Shown here one piece after another: positions 4,436 to 15,316 of a stretch of DNA of 35,904 bases. The notes beneath the pieces were generated by a model. The model worked only from the letters and a program-made list of their open reading frames with translations, made no database searches and was not told the DNA's origin. How positions within the stretch are numbered: position 1 is the stretch's first letter; each line of letters opens with the position of its first letter. Position numbers and translations under genes: made by a program. This DNA is from Clostridia bacterium (GTDB lineage: Bacteria > Bacillota > Clostridia > Christensenellales > Borkfalkiaceae): NCBI GenBank assembly GCA_017623605.1, contig JAGAOR010000036.1:1-35904 (forward strand), given 5' to 3'.

Positions 4436-7084
4436 TCAATTCTTCGAAGCGCGAGTGGAAAAAAGATAATAGAACGCAACGAAGAAAAGAATATTCATTA
4501 GATAAATCACGGGAATGATTACGAACGAAAGAAGTTGCGCGGGATCAGACATTTGCGCTTTGAAATATACAGCCACCATAGTAACGATAATCACGGTGAT
4601 TACGAACACGACTGCCGCCGTTAGAATATAAGAGGGGTGCTTGCGCCGTCTTGCTCTGGGGCGGTAGCCGCAAGCGTAGAGAATGGAGCAAGCGATGAAC
4701 GTAATAAAGCCAAGCGCAAATCCGACGATGGGGTACGCGGCGTTTACACCGATATAATCCTTGATAAAGAATGCGATCAAGCTTTCAAATGCGATTATAC
4801 AAAATACGATAAACGCGGATTTAAAAAGAGTAAGCCCAACGTTATAACAACCAACGCTGTTGGCCGTTTTCCGTTCGATCGTGGTGTTGGTGGAAACGTT
4901 TGCTCTGCCCATATTGCCTGCGGTGTTGAGCTTGATCCCTTCCGATTGTGCGCGCTCTCGAAGATCGTTGAAATTTGCTTCCGGTTGATCGTTAGATTGC
5001 GTAGGGGTGGGCGCGTTATAATAACCGTAGCGTTCGGGTTGACGTTGCGCGTAGCCGTAGGAGTATTCGCTATTTGCCGAATACGCGGCGTACTGTTGAG
5101 AGCGGAATTCGCGAGCGGCGTTGTTCAGATCGGTTTCTCTGCGGGAAAGTTCTAATTCCCGTTCGCGTAAATCGTTGAGTTGCCGTTGATAGCTTGCCGT
5201 TTCGTCTGCGGCGCGCGCCTGCATATCCTTTTGTTGTTTTTCCGTTTCTTCCTTTTCTTGTTCGAATTTTGCTTTCTTGTCTTCAAGTTCCGATTTTTCA
5301 AGCTCCAAAATCCGCGCGCGTTCTTCGAGGTGCTGTTCTTCCAAGCGAAGTGCATTGCGCTCGTGTTCAAGCTTTTCAAGGTTTTCGTTAAAGAGTTTCA
5401 CTTGCGCATTGTAAGAGCTCAATTTATCCGCAAAATCGAATTGTTGCGCGGCGAGCGCGTTTTTACGCGCGATAAAATCAAGTTGTTGTTGATTGTAAAC
5501 GCTTTGTCGCGAGGAAAGCTCTTTTTGCTGTTGTTGCAGGATCGCCAAATCTTCTTGCAATTTATGATTGCTGCGAAGTAATTCCGTTTCCCGCGCTTGC
5601 AAATCGTCGCGAAGTCGTTCAATTTCTTCCGTGGAAGCGTTTGTTTGCGTTTCTTTATCGTCTACCGTGCGGCGTTCTTCTTGCAGGGCGTATTCGCGTT
5701 GTGTTACGTCGTAGGTTTTACGGTCGATTTCCGCGCGTTCTGCCTGCAACGCTTCCCGCATAACGTTTAATTCGTTGCGTTCCCGCAATAGTTGCGCTTT
5801 TTCCTCTTCCAACGCCTCGTTTTCGGTGCGAAGCGCGGAACGCTCAACCTCCAAGGTTTCCAGCTGATTTTTCAGCTCTTCACGGGTGGAAACAGCGGAT
5901 TCTTCCGTAAGCTTGACGTTTTCGACGTTTTCTCTCAAAGCGTTTTCCCGTTCGATAAGTTCCGCTTCCTTTTCATCAAGTGCGCGTTTATCGTTTTCCA
6001 ACCGCTCTTTTTGCGCATCTAATTGAGCTTGCTGCGAGCGAAGCTCCAAGCCGCGGTTGTAAAATTCCGTGGATTTGTTTTCGTAATCGCTTTTTAAAAG
6101 GGCAATCGTGTTCTCTTGCGTAGCGACGGCGGAATTGAGTGCGGCAATCACCGTTTTTTTATCTTCAAGCTCTGCTTGCGTAGCGGAAAGCTCGGCTTTT
6201 GCCGTTTCTAATTCTTCGCGGTTTGCCGCATTTGCACAATCTTGTTCAAGCTTGGCGTTTTCTTCACGAAGAAGCGCAATTTCGCGTTCCTTGTCCTCAA
6301 AAGCGGCTTGTTGCGATTCCAAACGCAGTTTTAATTCGTAAATTTCCGTGCTTTGGCGTTCAAGTTCTAATTTCGCATTGCCGATTTCCTGCTCTTTTTC
6401 CGCAAGGGCAATTTCTTTTGCTATGATTTCACCCTCTTTTTCTGCAAGGGCTTGGCGTTTTTCTTCCAATTCCCGCGTTTGCGCATCTACCTTTTCTTTC
6501 AATTCCTTGAAATCGTCCTTTTGCACGCTCAAAGAAGAACTTTGCGTGGAGAGGAGCGCGCGTTCGCGTTGCAATTCGTTTCGCAGACTCGTAAGCGCCG
6601 TTTTTTCGTCTTCAAGCGCTTGTTCTCGCGCTGCAAGCGCGCGTTTCAATTCCACGAGTTCTTTTTGCTTGTCCGTAATAAACGAAAAATCGTAGTGCGC
6701 GTTTCCGTCTGAAATCAGGCTGTCGATAATCGTTCTCGAATATTCCCATTCGGAAAGATTTTGCTCGGTGATCTGTTTGCCGTCGTCGGTGAGAGAAAAA
6801 TATTTTCTTCTGCCGCCGTTGGAATAATCGCCGTAATAAGAGGTAACGTATTTAAGCGATTCCAAACGCTTCAACGCACTATAAAGGGTGGGCTGTTTGA
6901 TCGTGTATAAACCGCCGCTTTTCTTTTCAATCTCGTCGATAATCTCGTAGCCGTATTTATCGCCGTCGTATAAACTTCTTAAAATGATAGTGTTGATGTG
7001 CCCGCGGATTAAATCGGAGCTGATGCCGAAATTTTGTTCCTCACCGCCCGTCAATCCTTGAACCTCGTCCATTCTCTCGTCCAT
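4436..7084 (-). CDS. PadR-family regulator with giant coiled coil and C-terminal membrane domain
   Basis: An 882-residue protein. The start at 7084 is chosen because AAGAGGAGA lies 7 bases upstream; a longer frame to 7150 has no ribosome site. Residues ~20-115 are a PadR winged helix (LIRGHINTIILRSLYDGDKYGYEI, then KQPTLYSALKRLESLKYV and GGRRKYFSLTDDGKQ). Residues ~130-665 are almost continuous heptad-rich, Glu/Lys/Gln/Arg-rich coiled coil. A Tyr/Gln-rich linker (YGYAQRQPERYGYYNAP) follows. Residues ~745-880 hold four membrane helices separated by a short basic loop (RPRARRRK). Ordinary PadR proteins are 100-200 residues, soluble, and end after one dimerisation helix. This architecture implies a membrane-tethered DNA-binding protein or a cytoskeleton-like anchor. 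It is monocistronic, with its own promoter, operator-like palindrome and terminator. Confidence 0.85.
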   Translation of the reverse strand: MDERMDEVQGLTGGEEQNFGISSDLIRGHINTIILRSLYDGDKYGYEIIDEIEKKSGGLYTIKQPTLYSALKRLESLKYVTSYYGDYSNGGRRKYFSLTDDGKQITEQNLSEWEYSRTIIDSLISDGNAHYDFSFITDKQKELVELKRALAAREQALEDEKTALTSLRNELQRERALLSTQSSSLSVQKDDFKELKEKVDAQTRELEEKRQALAEKEGEIIAKEIALAEKEQEIGNAKLELERQSTEIYELKLRLESQQAAFEDKEREIALLREENAKLEQDCANAANREELETAKAELSATQAELEDKKTVIAALNSAVATQENTIALLKSDYENKSTEFYNRGLELRSQQAQLDAQKERLENDKRALDEKEAELIERENALRENVENVKLTEESAVSTREELKNQLETLEVERSALRTENEALEEEKAQLLRERNELNVMREALQAERAEIDRKTYDVTQREYALQEERRTVDDKETQTNASTEEIERLRDDLQARETELLRSNHKLQEDLAILQQQQKELSSRQSVYNQQQLDFIARKNALAAQQFDFADKLSSYNAQVKLFNENLEKLEHERNALRLEEQHLEERARILELEKSELEDKKAKFEQEKEETEKQQKDMQARAADETASYQRQLNDLRERELELSRRETDLNNAAREFRSQQYAAYSANSEYSYGYAQRQPERYGYYNAPTPTQSNDQPEANFNDLRERAQSEGIKLNTAGNMGRANVSTNTTIERKTANSVGCYNVGLTLFKSAFIVFCIIAFESLIAFFIKDYIGVNAAYPIVGFALGFITFIACSILYACGYRPRARRRKHPSYILTAAVVFVITVIIVTMVAVYFKAQMSDPAQLLSFVIIPVIYLMNILFFVAFYYLFSTRASKN

Positions 7085-7106
7085 AAACCGTTCTCCTCTT
7101 GTGTTG

Positions 7107-7139
7107 TTTGTCTGATAGAGTAGTACTATGTCAGATGTA
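7107..7139 (-). promoter_or_regulatory. Degenerate copies of the TATGTCWGACATA palindrome in the padR-like leader
   Basis: TATGTCAGATGTA (7127-7139, first nine bases match) and TTTGTCTGATAGA (7107-7119, 10 of 13 match) lie 20 bases apart in the 5' leader of the PadR-type gene, between its promoter and its ribosome site. They resemble the exact arrays before ynbB and sigK. The match is imperfect, so the call is tentative. Confidence 0.35.
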
Positions 7140-7149
7140 AAATAGGGCA

Positions 7150-7171
7150 AAAAGATAATTTATTATCTTTT
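7150..7171 (-). promoter_or_regulatory. Operator-like palindrome over the padR-like start site
   Basis: A perfect inverted repeat with 9-bp arms, AAAAGATAA and TTATCTTTT, around TTTA. It begins 10 bases downstream of the -10 box and covers the expected transcription start of the minus-strand promoter, a usual place for an autorepressor site. Confidence 0.55.
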
Positions 7172-7180
7172 ACGTAAAGT

Positions 7181-7209
7181 ATTATATCACAAATAGAATA
7201 AAAAGTCAA
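7181..7209 (-). promoter_or_regulatory. Sigma-A promoter of the PadR/coiled-coil gene
   Basis: Minus strand: TTGACT (7209-7204), 17-base spacer, TATAAT (7186-7181). The expected start near 7174 gives a leader of about 90 bases. Confidence 0.85.
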
Positions 7210-7282
7210 TCATATATACGACAAAAAACGGCGAGAATGGAAATATTTCACCTAATTTTTTCCTGAAAGCCGTTTGTCGCCG

Positions 7283-7311
7283 TTGACATTTGTTGGTAAA
7301 AAGTGTATAAT
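7283..7311 (+). promoter_or_regulatory. Sigma-A promoter of the thioesterase gene
   Basis: TTGACA (7283-7288), 17-base spacer, TATAAT (7306-7311). The expected start point is about 7318-7319, only 3-4 bases before the ATG at 7322, so the mRNA would be essentially leaderless. Confidence 0.85.
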
Positions 7312-7321
7312 GAAAATCACT

Positions 7322-8077
7322 ATGAAACCTTACGAACACGTTAGAGCATTTCAAATTAAATATTGCGATGCGGATTTTAAAGACGAAATGAAAACGTCCG
7401 TCGCGCTTTCTTTTATGGAAGAAGCGGCTTGTTCGAGCGCGGACGAGCTGGGATTTGGGTATGCGTATTTAAAGCCGAAAGGATATGCGTTTATGGTAAC
7501 GAATACCTGTATAGAATTCAATCGACCGATTTTGCTTGGGGAGGGGATACTTCTTAAAACGTGGCCCACGCCTCCCTCGTACGTAGTGTTCGGCAGGGAA
7601 TATCAGATGCTTTCCAAAAACGGAGAATTACTCGCAAACGCCTCTTCTCGGTGGTGTTTGGTGGATATAAAAACGGGGAAATTGTTGCAATCTAAAAGAA
7701 TTGATAATCAAGATTATTCTACGTATAACACGTCGAAAGCGTTGGAAAACGTGCAATGGAAGCTTCCTGCTTTTCAGATAGAGGACGGCGAATTGAAGTT
7801 TACTCTCACGATCGCAAATTCCGAATACGATCACAATATGCACGTGAATAACACACGATATGCGGACTATTGTTTCAACTGTTTTTCGATCGAAGAGCTT
7901 AAAAATCGGAAATTGAAGAAATTTTCTATTTCTTACGTCAAGCAATGCCACGAGGGAGACGTTTTGAAGTTTTACCGAAAACGTGAAGCGGACGGAAGCT
8001 ATTTGGCGCACGGCTTTAACGGGGCGGGTGAGCTCGTCGTGCAATCGCGAATCGTATTTTCGGAGGACGAGGGGTAA
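7322..8077 (+). CDS. Acyl-ACP thioesterase (double hot-dog, FatA/FatB type)
   Basis: A 251-residue protein that should release fatty acids from acyl carrier protein. Two hot-dog halves are visible. The second contains the family motif as DHNMHVNNTRYADY, keeping the Asp, Asn and His of the plant FatB active site (D-x-N-x-H). The later motif reads YVKQCHEGD, with Gln where plant FatB and many bacterial members have Glu before the Cys position. A start at 7274 would lie upstream of the promoter and one at 7310 inside the -10 box, so 7322 is preferred; no ribosome site precedes it. argJ follows after three bases and is probably co-transcribed. Confidence 0.82.
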   Translation: MKPYEHVRAFQIKYCDADFKDEMKTSVALSFMEEAACSSADELGFGYAYLKPKGYAFMVTNTCIEFNRPILLGEGILLKTWPTPPSYVVFGREYQMLSKNGELLANASSRWCLVDIKTGKLLQSKRIDNQDYSTYNTSKALENVQWKLPAFQIEDGELKFTLTIANSEYDHNMHVNNTRYADYCFNCFSIEELKNRKLKKFSISYVKQCHEGDVLKFYRKREADGSYLAHGFNGAGELVVQSRIVFSEDEG

Positions 8078-8080
8078 ATA

Positions 8081-9259
8081 ATGCGGAAGAACGGCGTAAA
8101 TAGAGAGTTAGAGCCGATCGAGGGCGGTGTGTGCGCGCCTGCGGGTTTTACGGCAAACGGCGCGGGCGGACTTGCTTTGATCGCGGGAGAAAAGCGTTTT
8201 CCCGCGGCGGGCGTATTTTCGCAAAGCGCAGTGATCGGCGCGCCCGTTTCGGTGAGTAAGCGGCATATCAAATCGGGATATGCAAGAGCGGTATTTATCA
8301 ATAGTGGCGTAGCGAACGTATGTCAGGAAAACGGGGAAAGGGAGGCGAAAGAGATATGCGGCGCGCTTGCCAAGCGTTTGCATTGCGATACGGAGGAAAT
8401 CTTGATTGCTTCTACCGGCAAGATCGGACCGCGTTTCCAAGCGGAAGAAATCGTACGCGGGCTCGACTTTTTAACGCAGGGTTTGGGTGCGTCGCACGGG
8501 CATAGTATAGCGGCGGCGCGGGCGATTATGACGACGGATAAAGCCGTGAAGCAGCTTTCCTTTGCGTTTGATTTAGGGGATTTCCGTTGCAAGATCGGAG
8601 CGGTTTTTAAGGGCAACGCGCGCGTTTGCCCGAATATGGCGACGACGCTTTGCGTTTTAACCACGGACGTGAACATTACGCCGCAAATGCTACAAAAAGC
8701 GTTGAGTTTTGCGACGAATGAAACGCTGAATATGCTTAATTTCGACGGCTTGGCTTCGCCAAACGACACGACGTGCATTTTCTCTTCCCGTGCGGCGGGA
8801 AATTACGCGATCTCTTGCGCCGATTCCGAATATAAAAAATTCGTTTCCGCTTTGCAAAAAACGCTTTTCGAGGTTTGCCTGACGATGATCAAAGACGGCG
8901 ATTCGACGAATCAAACGCTCGTATGTCAAACGATCGGTGCGAAATCAAAGCGTGTTGCGCGTGCGGTGGCAAAATCGGTGATTTCCGCAAGGCTTTTTCA
9001 GGATAAAGCATTGCAAACGGAGGATTTATTATGCGCAATGCTTAGTGCGGGCGAGGCGTTGGATTTGCGCGGGGCAGAAATCACGCTTTCTGGTAAAAAT
9101 ACCGCAATTACTCTTATGATGGACGGAAAGGTGATCGCCTTTTCCGCTTCCACCGTTTCAGAAATTTTATCCTGCGAGGAAATTTTGCTTTGCATAAACT
9201 TAAACGACGGTAACTACGGTGCGACGGCGCTTGGTCGCATAGCGGGAAAAACTTTTTAA
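8081..9259 (+). CDS. argJ: Divergent ArgJ-family protein (glutamate N-acetyltransferase fold)
   Basis: A 392-residue protein with ArgJ layout: GGVCAPAGFTANG near the N-terminus, NSGVANV (family NSGNANA), ASTGKIG keeping the oxyanion Thr-Gly, MTTDKAVK, and the self-cleavage site PNMATTL with Thr188 as N-terminal nucleophile. Several conserved places are changed: KGSGMI reads KGNARVC, DGEGATK reads DGDSTNQ (272-278, Asp for the catalytic Glu), the NWGR block is not recognisable, and the C-terminus stops at LGRIAGKTF without the usual ending that carries the substrate-binding Asn. ArgJ normally transfers acetyl from acetylornithine to glutamate. No argB, argC or argD is adjacent, though carAB follow. 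Possibly still a transferase with altered substrate; the canonical activity is doubtful. Confidence 0.7.
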   Translation: MRKNGVNRELEPIEGGVCAPAGFTANGAGGLALIAGEKRFPAAGVFSQSAVIGAPVSVSKRHIKSGYARAVFINSGVANVCQENGEREAKEICGALAKRLHCDTEEILIASTGKIGPRFQAEEIVRGLDFLTQGLGASHGHSIAAARAIMTTDKAVKQLSFAFDLGDFRCKIGAVFKGNARVCPNMATTLCVLTTDVNITPQMLQKALSFATNETLNMLNFDGLASPNDTTCIFSSRAAGNYAISCADSEYKKFVSALQKTLFEVCLTMIKDGDSTNQTLVCQTIGAKSKRVARAVAKSVISARLFQDKALQTEDLLCAMLSAGEALDLRGAEITLSGKNTAITLMMDGKVIAFSASTVSEILSCEEILLCINLNDGNYGATALGRIAGKTF

Positions 9260-9496: not shown

Positions 9497-9552
9497 GGAA
9501 AAAATTCTGTTTGCGGGTATAGAAAAATAAATTTTCCGATAGAGGAGTGCAT

Positions 9553-10632
9553 ATGAAAAAGAAGAAAGTGTATTTGACGTTAGAGAACGGCGACGTATTC
9601 CAAGGCTATCGTTTCGGCGCGGACGGCGAGGCTGTGGGCGAGCTCGTGTTTTCGACGGGTATGGTAGGCTACGTGGAAACGCTCACCGATCCGTCTAATC
9701 TCGGACAAATCGTGGTACAGACGTTCCCGCTCGTGGGAAACTACGGCGTGAACGAGAGCGATGCGGAAAGCGACAGGGCGTGGGTAACGGCGTACGTCGT
9801 GCGTGAATTTTGCGACGAGCCGTCCAATTTCCGTAGTGAAATTTCGCTTGACGCGTATTTGAAAAAGCAAGGCGTGATCGGTATTTACGGCGTAGATACC
9901 CGTCAGCTTACGAAAATCTTGCGCGAGGAAGGCGTGATGAACGCGCGTATTTCCGATAAGCCCGCTGTGGACGAATACGACGATACCGCAGAATTTTACG
10001 TAAAGGACGCGGTGAAAACGGTTGCGCCCAAGGAATATAAAACGTACGGCGAAGAGAACGCAAAATATACGGTTGCACTTTGGAATTTCGGCGCGAAGAA
10101 CAGTATGATCAATAGTTTGCTTTCGCAAGGTTGTCGCGTAATTTCCGTGCCCGCGTTTGCTACGGCGGAAGAAGTGCTGGGAACGAACGCCGACGGCGTA
10201 GTGCTTTCGGACGGACCGGGCGATCCTATGGAAAATCAATCAATCGTGGAAGAAGTGAAAAAGCTACTCGGCAAAAAGCCTGTGCTTGGCACGGGGCTTG
10301 GACATCAGCTCGTTGCGCTTGCGCTCGGCGCAGAAACGGCAAAATGTAAATATGGGCATAGAGGTAGCAATCAACCTGTGAAATGCTTGGATTGCGGTAA
10401 AGTATATATTTCCACGCAAAACCACGGCTATCAAGTGTTGGAAGAAAGCTTAAAGACGGGTAGAGTTCAGTTTGTGAACGTAAACGACGGGGCTTGCGAG
10501 GGAATTGCTTATGAAGATCTGAACGCGTTTACTACGCAGTTTGCGCCGGAAAGCTGTAATGATTTCCGCGGTGGAAAGCCCTTGTTTGAAAAATTCTTTA
10601 CGCTTATGAGAAAGGAGAAAGAAAATGCCTAA
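9553..10632 (+). CDS. carA: Carbamoyl-phosphate synthase small subunit with inactivated glutaminase site
   Basis: A 359-residue protein with an N-terminal CarA domain (GMVGYVETLTDPSN, PLVGNYG, GVDTRQLTKILR) and a class I glutamine amidotransferase domain (LSDGPGDP, KYGHRGSNQPVK, QNHGYQV). The nucleophile-elbow motif GxCLGHQ reads GTGLGHQ: residue 248 is Gly (codon GGG at 10294). The catalytic His of QFHPE is Ala331 (QFAPES, codon GCG at 10543); Glu333 is kept. With both Cys and His gone it should not hydrolyse glutamine, though the fold looks intact. The ATG at 9553 follows AGAGGAG by 5 bases; earlier in-frame starts have none. It overlaps carB by 8 bases, so the subunits are translationally coupled. 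It may serve as a structural subunit for an ammonia-dependent synthase. Confidence 0.92.
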   Translation: MKKKKVYLTLENGDVFQGYRFGADGEAVGELVFSTGMVGYVETLTDPSNLGQIVVQTFPLVGNYGVNESDAESDRAWVTAYVVREFCDEPSNFRSEISLDAYLKKQGVIGIYGVDTRQLTKILREEGVMNARISDKPAVDEYDDTAEFYVKDAVKTVAPKEYKTYGEENAKYTVALWNFGAKNSMINSLLSQGCRVISVPAFATAEEVLGTNADGVVLSDGPGDPMENQSIVEEVKKLLGKKPVLGTGLGHQLVALALGAETAKCKYGHRGSNQPVKCLDCGKVYISTQNHGYQVLEESLKTGRVQFVNVNDGACEGIAYEDLNAFTTQFAPESCNDFRGGKPLFEKFFTLMRKEKENA

Positions 10633-13600
10633 AAGAAGTTATATTAAAAAAGTGCTGGTAATCGGTTCAGGTCCTATCGTAATTGGACAAGCCGCAGAAT
10701 TCGACTATGCAGGCGCGCAAGCTTGTCGCGTTATGAAAAGCGAGGGCGTGAACGTCGTGCTTTGCAATTCCAACCCCGCTACGATTATGACGGACAAGGC
10801 TCTTGCCGACGAGATTTATCTCGAACCGCTTACGGAAGAAAGCTTAAAGAGAATTATCATTAAGGAAAAACCCGATAGTCTGCTTGCTTCGCTTGGCGGG
10901 CAAACGGGGCTTACTATGGGTTGTAAGCTTGCAAAATCGGGTTTCCTTGAAAAGCACGGTGTAAAACTCATCGGCACGAAGCTGGACGCAATCGACCGTT
11001 CGGAGGATCGCGAGCTGTTCAAGGAAACGATGGAAAAGATCAATCAGCCCTGCGTTCCTTCGGATATTGCCTATACGGTAGAGGAATGCGTTGCGATTGC
11101 CAATAAGCTTGGGTATCCCGTGATTATCCGTCCTGCGTACACCCTCGGCGGTGCGGGCGGTGGCGTTGCTTATAACGAAGAAGAATTGCGCCTAATCTCC
11201 CATAACGGCTTGATGCTTTCGCCGATTACGCAGGTTTTAATTGAAAAATACATCGCAGGTTGGAAAGAAATCGAATTTGAAGTGTTGCGCGATAGCAAGG
11301 GTAACGTGCTCACCGTTTGTTCTATGGAAAACGTCGATCCCGTTGGTATTCACACGGGCGATTCGATCGTTGTCGCGCCCGCGGTTACGCTTTCTACGAA
11401 AGAATACGATATGCTTCGCACGGCGGCGCTTTCGATCATTACAGAGCTGGGTATTGAGGGTGGTTGTAACGTGCAATTTGCGCTCAATCCCGATTCGTTT
11501 GAATATTCAGTAATCGAGGTGAATCCCCGCGTGAGTCGCTCGTCCGCGCTTGCTTCCAAGGCAACGGGATTCCCGATTGCCAAGGTTACGTCTAAAATCG
11601 CACTCGGCTACACGCTCGACGAGATTGTAAACGACGTAACGGGCAACACCTACGCGTGTTTCGAACCGACGATTGATTATTTGGTCGTTAAAATGCCGAA
11701 ATGGCCCTTTGATAAGTTCCTGTATGCAAAGCGCGAGCTGGGCACGAGAATGAAAGCGACGGGCGAGGTGATGGCGATCGGTACGTCCTTTGAAATGGCG
11801 ATTATGAAAGCGGTGCGTGGTGCGGAAATCTCCACGAGTACTATGAATTATAAAAAATTCGCCGATTATACGAAGGAAGAGCTTCTTGCAAAACTTCCCG
11901 AAATGACGGACGAACGCATTTTCGTCGTATACGCCGCGCTGAAAAAAGGCGTTACGCCAGACGAGGTGTTCGCGATCACCAAGATTGATCGGTGGTTCTT
12001 GAATAAGTTTAAAAACTTGATCGCGTACGAAGAGGCGCTCGCAACGCAAAAACTTACTCGCGAGCTCTACGAGGAGGGTAAACGCCTTGGGTATCTCGAT
12101 AAGGATATTGCCTTATTAAGCGGGCAAAAAGTGCCGTATCGTAAGAAAGCGGCGTATAAAATGGTGGATACTTGCGCGGCAGAATTCCCCGCAAAAACGC
12201 CCTATTTCTATTCGACGTTCGATCCCCACGAACACGACGAGGCGAAGCCGTTCCTTGGCAAGAGTGATAAAAAGCGTATCGTCGTTATCGGTTCAGGACC
12301 TATTCGTATCGGGCAGGGTATCGAATTCGACTATTCGTCCGTGCATTGCGTTTGGACGCTCAAAGAGCTCGGCTACGAGGTGGCGATTATCAATAACAAC
12401 CCCGAAACGGTTTCGACTGACTTCGATACGGCGGACAGATTGTATTTCGAGCCTTTAACGCCCGAGGACGTACAACACGTTTTAGACGTTGAAAAACCGT
12501 ACGGCGTTATTATCACGTTCGGCGGACAGACGGCGATTAAGCTTTGCGCGTATTTTGCTTCGCACGGGATTCGGATTTTGGGTACGTCAGCAGATAGCGT
12601 AGACGCGGCAGAGGATAGAGAACGTTTTGAAGCCTTGTTGGATAAATATTCCATTCCCCGTCCGAAAGCGCTTACGGTTATGACGAAAGAAGAAGCGCTC
12701 CAAGCGGCGGAAAAGCTGGAATATCCCGTTCTGCTTCGTCCGTCCTACGTAATCGGCGGGCAGAATATGACGATTGCGTTCACGCAAGAGGACGTATGTC
12801 GTTATATGGACGTCATTTTAGCACAGGGTATTGAAAATCCCGTGCTTTGCGATAAATACCTTATGGGTACGGAATTAGAAGTAGACGCGATCTCCGACGG
12901 AAAAGACGTGTTAATTCCGGGGATTATGCAACACATAGAACGTACGGGTATTCACTCGGGCGATTCGATTGCGGTGTACCCGCCGTATAATCTCGACGAT
13001 TCTATGCTTGAAAAGATCATTGAGGTATCCACGCAGCTTGCGTTAGAGCTCAAAACGAAAGGGCTCATTAACATACAGTATTTGATTTACCGCGGGCAGT
13101 TGTACGTAATCGAGGTGAATCCCAGAGCTTCTCGTACCGTGCCGTATATTTCCAAGGTAACGGGTGTGCCGATGGTGGAGCTTGCCACGAAGATTATCGT
13201 AGGGGCGAAGCTGAAAAAGCTCGGTTACGGAACGGGTTTATATCCCTCTTCGCCGTACGTGGCGGTGAAAGTACCCGTATTCAGTTTTGAAAAGCTCAAC
13301 GACGTAAATTCCCAGCTTGGTCCGCAAATGAAATCGACGGGCGAGGTTTTGGGTATCGGTAAAACGATTGAAGAGGCTATGTTCAAAGGGCTCGTTTCTG
13401 CGGGCTTTAAGATGTGTCATCCCTCCGAACGCCGTCCCGTGGGCGTGTATATGACGGTAAACGATCAAGATAAGCTCGACGTACTCACGATCGCGAAGAA
13501 ATTCGGCGATCTTGGTTGCACGATGTACGCAACGAAAGGTACGGCAAAGGTGATTAACGATCTCGGTTTCGATTGTACGGTCGTAGAGCGTTTGTCCGCA

Positions 13601-14680
13601 ACAGATACTGTCATTAAGATTATGGACGAGGGCAAGATTGATTATATCGTGTATACGGGTAAAACGGATATGGAATCCATCAACGACTTTATTCGTTTGC
13701 ATCACCACGCGATATTGCTTGGAATTACGGTGCTCACCGCGCTTGATACGGCAAACGCGCTTGCGGATATTATCGCGAGTCGCTTCACCGAGGATAACAC
13801 CGAGCTCGTAGACATCAACGCGCTTCGAGAGGAAAAGCTCAAACTTCGCTTCACGAAAATGCAATCGTGCGGAAACGATTATATCGTATTTGATAACCGC
13901 GACGGAAAGATTACTTGCCCGGAATCAATCGCAGTAAACTACGTGCTCCCGCATTACGGAATCGGTGGCGACGGCGTTGCACTTATTGAAAATTCAGAGA
14001 TTGCCGACGCAAAAATGCGCGTGTTCAATAGGGACGGTCGTGAAGCACCGCAGGGCGGTAACGCGATTCGCTGTATTGGTAAATACCTCTACGAAAAGGG
14101 TATCGTACGCAAAAACGAAATGAAGATCGAAACGGCGAAAGGCGTGAACGACGTGCGTGTGTATTCGTTTGGTGGCAAGGTAAATTCAGCAAGCGTGAAT
14201 TTGGGCAAGGTAGAACTTGCGGGCGAAAAAATTCCTTGCGTTTGGAAAGAGAAGGAAATCGTAGATAAGGAAATCACCGTCGGCGGCGTGGAATATAAAG
14301 CGACGCTCGTGAACGTGGGTAATCCTCATTGTGTGATTTTCTGTGATAAAGTGGACGCTATGGACGTGGAAACGATCGGTTCGGAGCTTGAAAATAGCGA
14401 ATATTTCCCCGAGGGAATCAACACGGAATTTATCCGTGTCGTGAACAAAGTAACGCTTAAAATGCGCGTTTGGGAACGCGGTAGTGGCGAAACGTGGGCT
14501 TGCGGCACGGGCGCGTGCGCGGCGGTCGTTGCGGCGGTGCTCAAAGGCTATTGTGAAAAGGATACCAACGTAACCGTGAAGCTTCGCGGCGGCGATTTAA
14601 CGGTGAATTACCACTCGAACGGAGAAGTGGAGCTTATGGGTAGCGTGAAAACCGTGTACGAGGGTACTCTCGAAATTTAA
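10625..14680 (+). CDS. carB: Carbamoyl-phosphate synthase large subunit fused to a DapF domain
   Basis: One uninterrupted 1351-residue frame. Residues 1-1070 are a complete CarB: two ATP-grasp synthetase halves (GSGPIVIGQAAEFDYAG; RPAYTLGGAGGG; EVNPRVSRSSALASKATG; then GSGPIRIGQGIEFDYSS; EVNPRASRTVPYISKVTG) and the C-terminal allosteric domain (YATKGTAKVINDLG). From residue ~1074 to the end is a whole diaminopimelate epimerase: FTKMQSCGNDYIVFD, GIGGDGVALI, FNRDGREAPQ, GNPHCVIF, INTEFIRVV, WERGSGETWACGTGA. The second catalytic Cys is kept (C1293), but the first, normally in EMCGNG, is Gly1144 in PQGGNA, and the ADGS motif reads RDGR. So synthase chemistry looks intact while two-base epimerisation should fail. 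The junction has only a few residues between domains. A ribosome site AAAGGAG lies inside carA. Confidence 0.93.
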   Translation: MPKRSYIKKVLVIGSGPIVIGQAAEFDYAGAQACRVMKSEGVNVVLCNSNPATIMTDKALADEIYLEPLTEESLKRIIIKEKPDSLLASLGGQTGLTMGCKLAKSGFLEKHGVKLIGTKLDAIDRSEDRELFKETMEKINQPCVPSDIAYTVEECVAIANKLGYPVIIRPAYTLGGAGGGVAYNEEELRLISHNGLMLSPITQVLIEKYIAGWKEIEFEVLRDSKGNVLTVCSMENVDPVGIHTGDSIVVAPAVTLSTKEYDMLRTAALSIITELGIEGGCNVQFALNPDSFEYSVIEVNPRVSRSSALASKATGFPIAKVTSKIALGYTLDEIVNDVTGNTYACFEPTIDYLVVKMPKWPFDKFLYAKRELGTRMKATGEVMAIGTSFEMAIMKAVRGAEISTSTMNYKKFADYTKEELLAKLPEMTDERIFVVYAALKKGVTPDEVFAITKIDRWFLNKFKNLIAYEEALATQKLTRELYEEGKRLGYLDKDIALLSGQKVPYRKKAAYKMVDTCAAEFPAKTPYFYSTFDPHEHDEAKPFLGKSDKKRIVVIGSGPIRIGQGIEFDYSSVHCVWTLKELGYEVAIINNNPETVSTDFDTADRLYFEPLTPEDVQHVLDVEKPYGVIITFGGQTAIKLCAYFASHGIRILGTSADSVDAAEDRERFEALLDKYSIPRPKALTVMTKEEALQAAEKLEYPVLLRPSYVIGGQNMTIAFTQEDVCRYMDVILAQGIENPVLCDKYLMGTELEVDAISDGKDVLIPGIMQHIERTGIHSGDSIAVYPPYNLDDSMLEKIIEVSTQLALELKTKGLINIQYLIYRGQLYVIEVNPRASRTVPYISKVTGVPMVELATKIIVGAKLKKLGYGTGLYPSSPYVAVKVPVFSFEKLNDVNSQLGPQMKSTGEVLGIGKTIEEAMFKGLVSAGFKMCHPSERRPVGVYMTVNDQDKLDVLTIAKKFGDLGCTMYATKGTAKVINDLGFDCTVVERLSATDTVIKIMDEGKIDYIVYTGKTDMESINDFIRLHHHAILLGITVLTALDTANALADIIASRFTEDNTELVDINALREEKLKLRFTKMQSCGNDYIVFDNRDGKITCPESIAVNYVLPHYGIGGDGVALIENSEIADAKMRVFNRDGREAPQGGNAIRCIGKYLYEKGIVRKNEMKIETAKGVNDVRVYSFGGKVNSASVNLGKVELAGEKIPCVWKEKEIVDKEITVGGVEYKATLVNVGNPHCVIFCDKVDAMDVETIGSELENSEYFPEGINTEFIRVVNKVTLKMRVWERGSGETWACGTGACAAVVAAVLKGYCEKDTNVTVKLRGGDLTVNYHSNGEVELMGSVKTVYEGTLEI

Positions 14681-14698: not shown

Positions 14699-15316
14699 AT
14701 GGACGCTTTTTACGAAGAGAGTGCGACGGACAAAAACGAAACGCGCGGTAAACGAATGTATCGGATATTGCATATCGTTTCTATGGTCTTTTTTTGGATT
14801 GCAATTTTGTTTTTCGTTATATTTCTTTTGAATTTTCCTTGGTGGGGCGTAACGACGGACGAGGAACGGGCTTGGCAGTTTTTAATCGGCTTTATCGGTG
14901 TGTTAGGGGCGTCCTGCTTGCTTACTTGGTTTTTGTTTTCGAGGATAAAAATGCGCTTCAACGTGAGCTACGATTATTGCTTCGTTACGGGCGAATTGCG
15001 TATTTCGAAAGTGTATAACGTCAACCGCCGTAAAGTCGTTGCGCGTATTGATTGCGAGGATATGATACAAGTAGGCGATGCGGATAACTCTTCTTACGAG
15101 CGGTTTAAGGCAGATCCAACGATCAAAGAGGTGGTTTGCACGCCGAACGTAGAGCCCGCGGAGGGAAAATTCTTTATGTACGTGCTCGCAAACTATAACG
15201 GTAGAATGCTGTTCGTTTTGGAATGTCGCGAAAATCTCTTAATGAATATTATGAAATTTGCAAAGCGTAGCGTTTTGGAAAGTGATTACGTAATGCAGGA
15301 AAGAAAACAGAGATAA
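14699..15316 (+). CDS. Small two-helix membrane protein, unknown function
   Basis: A 205-residue protein starting behind AGAGGAGG. After a charged N-terminus it has two membrane helices (about 26-47, IVSMVFFWIAILFFVIFLL, and 62-81, LIGFIGVLGASCLLTWFLF). A soluble C-terminal domain of about 120 residues follows (FNVSYDYCFVTGELRISKVYN...), beta-rich, resembling membrane-anchored PH-like domains. No catalytic motif is visible. It sits between carB and the desulfurase gene, 18 bases after carB and one base before the next start, so it is in the same operon. Similar small proteins are common beside nifS-thiI in Clostridia, but I cannot name the family with certainty. Confidence 0.7.
   Translation: MDAFYEESATDKNETRGKRMYRILHIVSMVFFWIAILFFVIFLLNFPWWGVTTDEERAWQFLIGFIGVLGASCLLTWFLFSRIKMRFNVSYDYCFVTGELRISKVYNVNRRKVVARIDCEDMIQVGDADNSSYERFKADPTIKEVVCTPNVEPAEGKFFMYVLANYNGRMLFVLECRENLLMNIMKFAKRSVLESDYVMQERKQR

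What the first reader, a model, noticed from the sequence alone, without database searches (positions are those of the whole stretch)
13844..14680. In-frame CarB-DapF fusion whose epimerase domain lacks its first catalytic cysteine
Seen directly: a single frame of 1351 residues runs from a complete CarB into a complete DapF-like domain with almost no linker. The domain keeps the GND, GNPHC, ERGSGET and ACGTGA motifs, but EMCGNG is replaced by PQGGNA (Gly1144) and ADGS by RDGR. Established: DapF is a two-base epimerase using a Cys pair. Inference: the domain binds DAP, lysine or another amino acid without racemising it and may feed lysine/cell-wall status to carbamoyl phosphate synthesis, or it has a new reaction.
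Basis: partly seen in the sequence, partly recalled or inferred. Interest (0 to 1): 0.8.

Follow-up and report, generated by a model that had tools for sequence, protein, structure and literature searches.

The report
Carbamoyl-phosphate synthase with dead epimerase domain
In this gut bacterium and many relatives, the enzyme that makes carbamoyl phosphate carries at its end a cell-wall amino-acid enzyme (DapF) that seems to have lost its activity but kept its binding pocket, so it may now sense an amino acid and regulate its partner.

Summary
One 1351-residue frame (10625-14680) is a full CarB fused without linker to a full DapF domain; the first catalytic Cys is Gly1144, the second (Cys1293) is kept. 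It is no artefact: the fusion was read in 32 of 37 same-genus genomes, at least 86 of 297 order genomes, and elsewhere in the class. Fused copies with both Cys are nearly always the only DapF. Of 48 order genomes whose fused copy lost the first Cys, 46 have another DapF match or meso-DAP dehydrogenase. In the window's genus stand-alone DapF and dehydrogenase replace each other in 36 of 37 genomes; the window's genome has the dehydrogenase. So the fused domain is very probably no longer the DAP epimerase. Yet it is under purifying selection, the lost Cys is replaced only by Ala, Gly or Ser, and pocket residues are kept better than other conserved sites. Best explanation: a ligand-binding pseudoenzyme domain, probably DAP-binding, that tunes carbamoyl-phosphate synthesis; ligand and effect are inferred.

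The parts
10625..13843 (+). CarB part (residues 1-1073) of the fused protein: both ATP-grasp halves and the MGS-like allosteric domain
   Evidence: NCBIfam/Pfam; ATP-grasp motifs conserved in nearly all of the 37 rows compared, apart from frames cut short
13844..14680 (+). DapF-like domain (residues 1074-1351, then stop)
   Evidence: TIGR00652 253.3 bits; AlphaFold2 mean pLDDT 95.2, pTM 0.92
14054..14056 (+). Codon GGC, Gly1144, where active DapF has its first catalytic Cys (H. influenzae Cys73)
   Evidence: alignments
14501..14503 (+). Codon TGC, Cys1293, the retained second catalytic Cys (H. influenzae Cys217)
9547..10632 (+). carA, small subunit of carbamoyl-phosphate synthase; overlaps the start of carB
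   Evidence: TIGR01368 381.9 bits
10294..10296 (+). CarA Gly250 in place of the glutaminase nucleophile (E. coli Cys269; number recalled)
10543..10545 (+). CarA Ala333 in place of the triad His (E. coli His353; number recalled)
8081..9259 (+). ArgJ-like gene upstream (below NCBIfam's cut-offs), conserved neighbour; keeps the PNMAT stretch that I recall as the self-cleavage site
14699..15316 (+). 205-aa protein without a family match directly downstream, conserved neighbour

Best explanation
A CarB-DapF fusion that occurs across Clostridia was at first a working DAP epimerase tied to carbamoyl-phosphate synthase. In the ancestors of the window's family, and independently at least a few more times, meso-DAP became available by another route (a stand-alone DapF or meso-DAP dehydrogenase) and the fused domain lost its first catalytic Cys. 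It did not simply decay. Its closing two-lobed pocket still binds an amino acid, most likely meso-DAP or a close analogue, and through contact with the adjoining C-terminal allosteric domain of CarB it tunes carbamoyl-phosphate output (arginine, pyrimidines, hence UDP-sugars for the same cell wall). Shown here: fusion, Cys loss, other meso-DAP sources, purifying selection, pocket retention. Inferred: ancestral activity, ligand, binding, effect on CPS. Confidence: about 0.9 that the domain is not an active DAP epimerase; about 0.5 for the ligand-binding regulatory role.
For: Fusion read in 32 of 37 genus genomes. Order set of 87 fused frames: first Cys intact in 39, with an extra DapF match in only 1 of them; first Cys lost in 48, with an extra DapF match in 44, dehydrogenase only in 2, neither in 2. 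Genus: 26 of 26 genomes without stand-alone DapF have the dehydrogenase; 10 of 11 with one lack it. Stand-alone copies read have both Cys: 11 of 11 in the genus and 18 of 18 elsewhere in the order (17 of these lie beside a Cys-less fusion, one, L393, beside a Cys-intact one). DAP is made: DapB in 37 of 40 genomes, MurE with the DAP-type DNPR motif in 30 of 30 MurE loci. Selection: median dN/dS DapF part / CarB, Cys-less: window genus 0.083/0.040, rest of f1 0.177/0.076, f6-Ser 0.031/0.023, f24 0.141/0.072; Cys-intact: f6 0.12/0.052, f31 0.192/0.112. Nine of 11 listed pocket sites were conserved enough to test: retained at 0.977 against 0.896 for 50 other conserved sites in 88 Cys-less f1 sequences (0.961 against 0.897 in all 130); second Cys 88 of 88 in f1. 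First-Cys position is Ala 66, Gly 46, Ser 18 of 130. Literature: either Cys to Ser leaves under 0.1% activity in a DapF-like racemase (PMC8225329, passages); E. coli DapF with both Cys changed to Ala still binds and activates RppH (PMC4227774, passages).
Against: No binding or kinetic data. The DapF part diverges faster relative to CarB in three Cys-less groups (ratios 3.0, 2.85, 2.68; a fourth, f24, 1.64) than in Cys-intact ones (2.27, 1.67, 1.63): some relaxation. Five f24 sequences also lost the second Cys and read SGT where others have a GN motif, so the pocket is not kept in every lineage. G279 and G201 have neither backup, and in G177 and G042 the 'extra DapF' is only fragments. Ten fusions with both Cys coexist with the dehydrogenase, so a backup does not force the loss. 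The Cys-backup link rests on few independent events: at least 4 changes, 3 independent pairs, sign test not significant. The domain interface was not modelled. G001 and G002, placed in the genus, have an unfused, distant CarB.
Confidence: 0.5

Rival explanations
1. Structural passenger: the Cys-less domain is kept only because CarB folding, stability or oligomerisation has come to depend on it; ligand binding is irrelevant.
For: No linker between the domains; faster divergence of the DapF part in three of four Cys-less groups; five f24 genomes lost both Cys and a pocket motif but kept the domain.
Against: Pocket residues are kept better than other conserved residues in the window's family (0.977 against 0.896) and the second Cys in 88 of 88; the first Cys is replaced only by small residues.
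Confidence: 0.28
2. One-base chemistry: with one Cys left, the domain catalyses a different reaction, as trans-3-hydroxyproline dehydratase does in the proline-racemase family (recalled, not from a call).
For: Second Cys kept in 124 of 130 Cys-less fused sequences and 88 of 88 in f1, more than binding alone seems to need. Family-specific changes fixed in f1, for example at domain residues 8, 25, 127, 155, 157.
Against: No neighbouring gene suggests a substrate; the ancestor was very probably a plain DapF (inference); the second Cys is lost in five f24 genomes and in G042.
Confidence: 0.12
3. Still a DAP epimerase: another group (for example the Cys of the SCGND loop) replaces the first Cys.
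For: It is the only DapF found in the window's genome; Cys in that loop in 86 of 88 f1 sequences.
Against: That Cys also occurs in 24 of 68 DapF sequences that keep the first catalytic Cys, so it is not a replacement; every genus genome without a stand-alone DapF has the dehydrogenase; single Cys mutants of such enzymes are nearly dead (PMC8225329, passages).
Confidence: 0.07
4. Neutral remnant or assembly/frameshift artefact.
For: Window genome is an 81%-complete draft; most relatives read are drafts too.
Against: Same fusion in dozens of separate assemblies; dN/dS about 0.08 in the genus.
Confidence: 0.03

Closest known systems
Diaminopimelate epimerase DapF (TIGR00652, PF01678; solved 2OTN, 1BWZ, 9MRO)
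   Same: Full-length match; confident predicted fold; the listed pocket residues except the first Cys
   Different: First catalytic Cys is Gly; fused to CarB; another meso-DAP source in the genome
Carbamoyl-phosphate synthase CarAB (TIGR01368, TIGR01369)
   Same: Both subunits, ATP-grasp motifs conserved
   Different: Extra C-terminal DapF domain; glutaminase Cys and His absent in CarA
Human CPS1, ammonia-dependent synthetase (PMC4655335, abstract and passages)
   Same: Inactive glutaminase domain through loss of the Cys; effector control at the C-terminal domain
   Different: Bacterial two-subunit enzyme; His lost as well; extra DapF domain; NAG dependence untested
E. coli DapF as non-catalytic activator of RppH (PMC4227774, passages)
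   Same: DapF fold regulating another enzyme without needing its catalytic Cys
   Different: Separate proteins and a different partner; there the wild type is also a working epimerase

Membership tests
DapF (diaminopimelate epimerase) | Full-length match above the curated cut-off | tested here: met
   TIGR00652 253.3 bits, cut-off 114.65
DapF (diaminopimelate epimerase) | Two catalytic cysteines | tested here: not met
   Gly1144 / Cys1293; none of 32 genus fusions has the first Cys
DapF (diaminopimelate epimerase) | DAP-binding residues | tested here: met
   N11, N64, G74, N75, N157, N190, E208, R209, G218, T219 equivalents present in the window (site list partly recalled, partly in PMC12039745 and PMC8225329 passages)
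DapF (diaminopimelate epimerase) | Needed to supply meso-DAP | tested here: inconclusive
   Only DapF found, but meso-DAP dehydrogenase present
DapF (diaminopimelate epimerase) | Epimerises LL-DAP in vitro | not testable with these tools
   No assay
CarB large subunit | Two ATP-grasp halves with catalytic motifs | tested here: met
Glutamine-dependent CarA | Cys-His-Glu triad | tested here: not met
   Cys to Gly250, His to Ala333, Glu kept; 24 of 27 genus CarA lack Cys and His
Ammonia-dependent CPS (CPS I-like) | Inactive glutaminase with intact synthetase sites | tested here: met
   By residues only
Ammonia-dependent CPS (CPS I-like) | Activation by N-acetylglutamate | not testable with these tools
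   No assay; an ArgJ-like gene lies upstream

The most novel reading that the evidence does not exclude
A family-wide bacterial carbamoyl-phosphate synthase whose C-terminal DapF-derived pseudoenzyme domain senses meso-DAP and sets carbamoyl-phosphate, hence pyrimidine and UDP-sugar, supply to cell-wall precursor supply, in the window's genus working on free ammonia because its glutaminase subunit is dead too.
Probability: 0.3. Interest if true: 0.8.

Novelty: new variant of a known kind. Interest (0 to 1): 0.6.

Why it matters
It is a natural series: fused domain with both Cys, with one Cys lost, with both lost, the loss going along with a second source of meso-DAP. That lets one ask how an enzyme domain turns into a possible regulatory domain, and it suggests an untested link between cell-wall amino-acid supply and carbamoyl-phosphate synthesis. 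Annotation by model score calls this domain DAP epimerase, which would mislead metabolic models of these gut bacteria. No paper describing a CarB-DapF fusion showed up in the listings of six literature searches (one search listed 15 of 169 papers); public domain databases may already list the architecture.

Tried and rejected
Rejected: (1) artefact or frameshift, because dozens of separate assemblies share the fusion. (2) 'Cys loss is a property of the fusion': the 39 order fusions with the first Cys lie in f31 (17), f6 (14), f14 (4), f28 (2), f13 (1) and f26 (1), and 19 of 20 new class-level fusions read keep both Cys (of 22 class fusions read, L342 and L363 repeat order genomes; the 30 loci read are the best matches of a longer list, not a random draw). 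(3) The SCGND Cys as replacement nucleophile: also present in 24 of 68 sequences that keep the first Cys. (4) RDGR as meaningful: not shared by most relatives. (5) The stand-alone copies as duplicates of the fused gene: in a quick tree the f1 stand-alone copies mostly form a separate group outside the fused clade (many forks unsupported). (6) A degenerate ArgJ upstream: it scores below NCBIfam's cut-offs but keeps the PNMAT stretch.

Led nowhere: model A1 (CarB half plus DapF, for the domain interface) could not be queued; the Foldseek search could not be run; no model coordinates were available, so distances around Gly1144 were not measured. A literature search for bacterial CarA without Cys held no paper; one search listed 8, of which I saw passages of one.

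Rows dropped: G055 left out of the table; DapF hits spanning 200 or fewer residues left out; identical rows counted once; the dehydrogenase was not tested in G042, G118, G131, G314, G322 (marked unknown). 'Extra DapF' means more than one match (for G042). One search (45 genomes) showed a fused and a stand-alone frame in those with two or more matches, except that G177's second match is a 68-aa piece at a contig end; G042's further matches are pieces, one with a stop inside. A first MurE motif count on one strand (16 of 30) was redone on both strands (30 of 30).

Full report
Observation. The frame 10625-14680 codes for 1351 residues. The best CarB model matches residues 1-1053 and the DapF model 1075-1349, both well above their cut-offs. 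The first catalytic Cys position is Gly1144 (GGC) and the second is Cys1293. The closest solved relatives by sequence are DapF enzymes (2OTN, 1.5e-59). AlphaFold2 gives a confident model of the domain (mean pLDDT 95.2, pTM 0.92); no structural search could be run on it.

Distribution. Of 61 genomes, 54 have a DapF match; the fusion was read in 32 of the 37 genus members, the window's included (some frames are cut at contig ends). None of the 32 has the first Cys: 31 Gly, 1 Ser. The exceptions G001, G002 and G032 have only stand-alone DapF, and G005 and G023 have no DapF match. CarB of G001 and G002 is distant and unfused, with an intact CarA. Across the order, 221 of 297 genomes have a match, and fused frames were read in at least 86 of the 297. 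In a class sample 271 of 393 have a match. Of the 30 best loci read there, 22 are fused, 20 of them new, and 19 of those keep both Cys; 17 of these 19 genomes have a single DapF match. The one with Ser, G492, has three matches. Named relatives include Candidatus Scatosoma, Gallimonas and Borkfalkia, draft genomes of gut Clostridia. In locus L059 (G011, a contig of another type) carA, carB and dapF are separate; carB ends in TGA and the dapF ATG follows six bases later in the same frame, which shows the kind of operon from which such a fusion can arise by losing one stop codon.

Is it still the DAP epimerase? In the genus I compared stand-alone DapF with meso-DAP dehydrogenase Ddh. All 26 genomes without a stand-alone DapF have Ddh, including the window's; 10 of the 11 with one lack it; G011 has both. 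The 11 stand-alone copies have both Cys. The DAP route is in use: among 40 genomes searched (37 of the genus, 3 of the family) DapB is found in 37, LysA in 22, 19 of them over the cut-off (many are incomplete drafts), and MurE-like matches in all 40, 34 over the cut-off, with the DAP-type DNPR motif in 30 of 30 MurE loci (motif meaning recalled). So meso-DAP can be made without the fused domain.

The same pattern holds across the order (87 fused frames). With the first Cys (39, one of which lacks the second), only one genome has an extra DapF match; of the 37 genomes with both Cys that were tested for Ddh, 26 have neither an extra DapF nor Ddh, so there the fused domain is probably the working epimerase (DapB and LysA were not searched in those genomes). 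Without the first Cys (48), 44 have an extra DapF match, 2 have Ddh only (G236, G331) and 2 have neither (G279, G201); in G177 and G042 the extra matches are fragments. Of the stand-alone companions I read 18, all with both Cys; 17 lie beside a Cys-less fusion and one (L393, G087) beside a Cys-intact one. Relatedness limits this: on a CarB tree of 97 rows the Cys state needs at least 4 changes, and only 3 independent pairs exist on supported branches, mostly consistent in direction but not significant. Ten fusions with both Cys coexist with Ddh, so a backup permits but does not force the loss. A quick DapF tree puts 27 Cys-less fused rows in one supported clade; it places f11 there, whereas the CarB tree puts f11 beside f6, so the number of losses is uncertain.

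Is the Cys-less domain decaying? Median dN/dS, DapF part / CarB (dS is mostly above 1, so values are rough): Cys-less window genus 0.083/0.040, rest of f1 0.177/0.076, f6-Ser 0.031/0.023, f24 0.141/0.072; Cys-intact f6 0.12/0.052, f31 0.192/0.112. All are far below 1. Against my reading, the DapF part diverges faster relative to CarB in the Cys-less groups f1g1, f1 and f6-Ser (2.7-3.0) than in Cys-intact groups (1.6-2.3), though not in f24 (1.64). Of 11 pocket positions, nine are conserved enough in Cys-intact DapF to test; they are retained at 0.977 in 88 Cys-less f1 sequences, against 0.896 for 50 other conserved positions, and at 0.961 against 0.897 in all 130; the second Cys is kept in 88 of 88 f1 sequences. 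Over the 130 distinct Cys-less fused sequences, the first-Cys position is Ala 66, Gly 46 or Ser 18. Five f24 genomes are different: both Cys are Ser and a pocket motif has changed.

Mechanism. Substitution of either Cys leaves under 0.1% activity in the DapF-like racemase PddB (PMC8225329, passages). In Anabaena DapF the LL inhibitor bonds to the first Cys and the D,L inhibitor to the second (PMC12039745, abstract and passages), so the Cys kept here is the one that bonds the meso-type inhibitor; that meso-DAP is the ligand is my inference. E. coli DapF with both Cys replaced still binds and activates RppH (PMC4227774, passages), a precedent for a regulatory DapF. In human CPS1 the effector binds at the C-terminal domain and acts over a long range (PMC4655335, abstract and passages); the DapF domain sits directly after the corresponding domain of CarB. 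I therefore favour a ligand-binding pseudoenzyme that tunes CPS; a structural passenger is the main rival.

The neighbour CarA. Aligned with E. coli CarA (1T36), the catalytic Cys is Gly250 and the triad His is Ala333. Of 27 genus CarA genes next to the fusion, 24 lack both and 3 (G007, G010, G029) keep both; three more read (G003, G013, G023) also lack them; the CarA of G032 could not be read clearly there. CarA is found in 35 of 37 genus genomes, one copy in 33 and two in G011 and G013; the second copy in each of these two looks intact. CarB's ATP-grasp motifs are conserved. This CPS should therefore work with free ammonia; that is an inference from residues, not an assay. In the order set the CarA Cys is absent in 12 of 45 genomes with a Cys-less fused DapF and in 2 of 35 with an intact one; the two losses may be linked, though six of the 12 are close relatives in f6 with Ser at both sites.

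Context. The order thioesterase - ArgJ - CarA - CarB-DapF - 205-aa protein - NifS - ThiI recurs: of 28 genus loci, ArgJ precedes CarA in 21 and ThiI follows in 23, several of the rest ending at a contig edge. This points to a standing gene cluster on the arginine side.

Literature. The listings of six searches for CarB with DapF gave no description of the fusion (one search listed 15 of 169). The library holds open-licence papers only, and the architecture may be listed in domain databases, so novelty is claimed for the biological pattern, not for the existence of the architecture.

Noticed in passing
window 9547-10632 (CarA), codons 10294-10296 and 10543-10545: CarA has lost both the catalytic Cys and His; the same in 24 of 27 genus CarA genes, suggesting a bacterial ammonia-dependent carbamoyl-phosphate synthase.
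   Followed up: partly
L260, L274, L275, L282, L287, L292 (family f6): In these genomes the catalytic Cys of CarA and the first Cys of the fused DapF are both Ser (MLAVSLGHQ, MSGNGIR): a second lineage with paired losses.
   Followed up: partly
L059, carB and dapF (minus strand, 4964-9094): Unfused carA-carB-dapF operon in which carB and dapF are in the same frame, separated by one stop codon and six bases.
   Followed up: yes
L068 (G037) and L087 (G056): Stand-alone DapF-model proteins with Ser at both catalytic Cys positions (EKSGNG, LASGSSS); in G037 it is the only DapF match.
   Followed up: partly
window 4436-7150, minus strand: 904-residue frame with an N-terminal PadR-type regulator domain (best stretch residues 56-127) followed by a long stretch with SMC-like matches; unusual for a PadR regulator.
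   Followed up: no
L276, L277, L285, L291, L296 (family f24): Fused DapF domains with both Cys replaced by Ser and the GN pocket motif changed to GT: a further decayed or altered form.
   Followed up: partly
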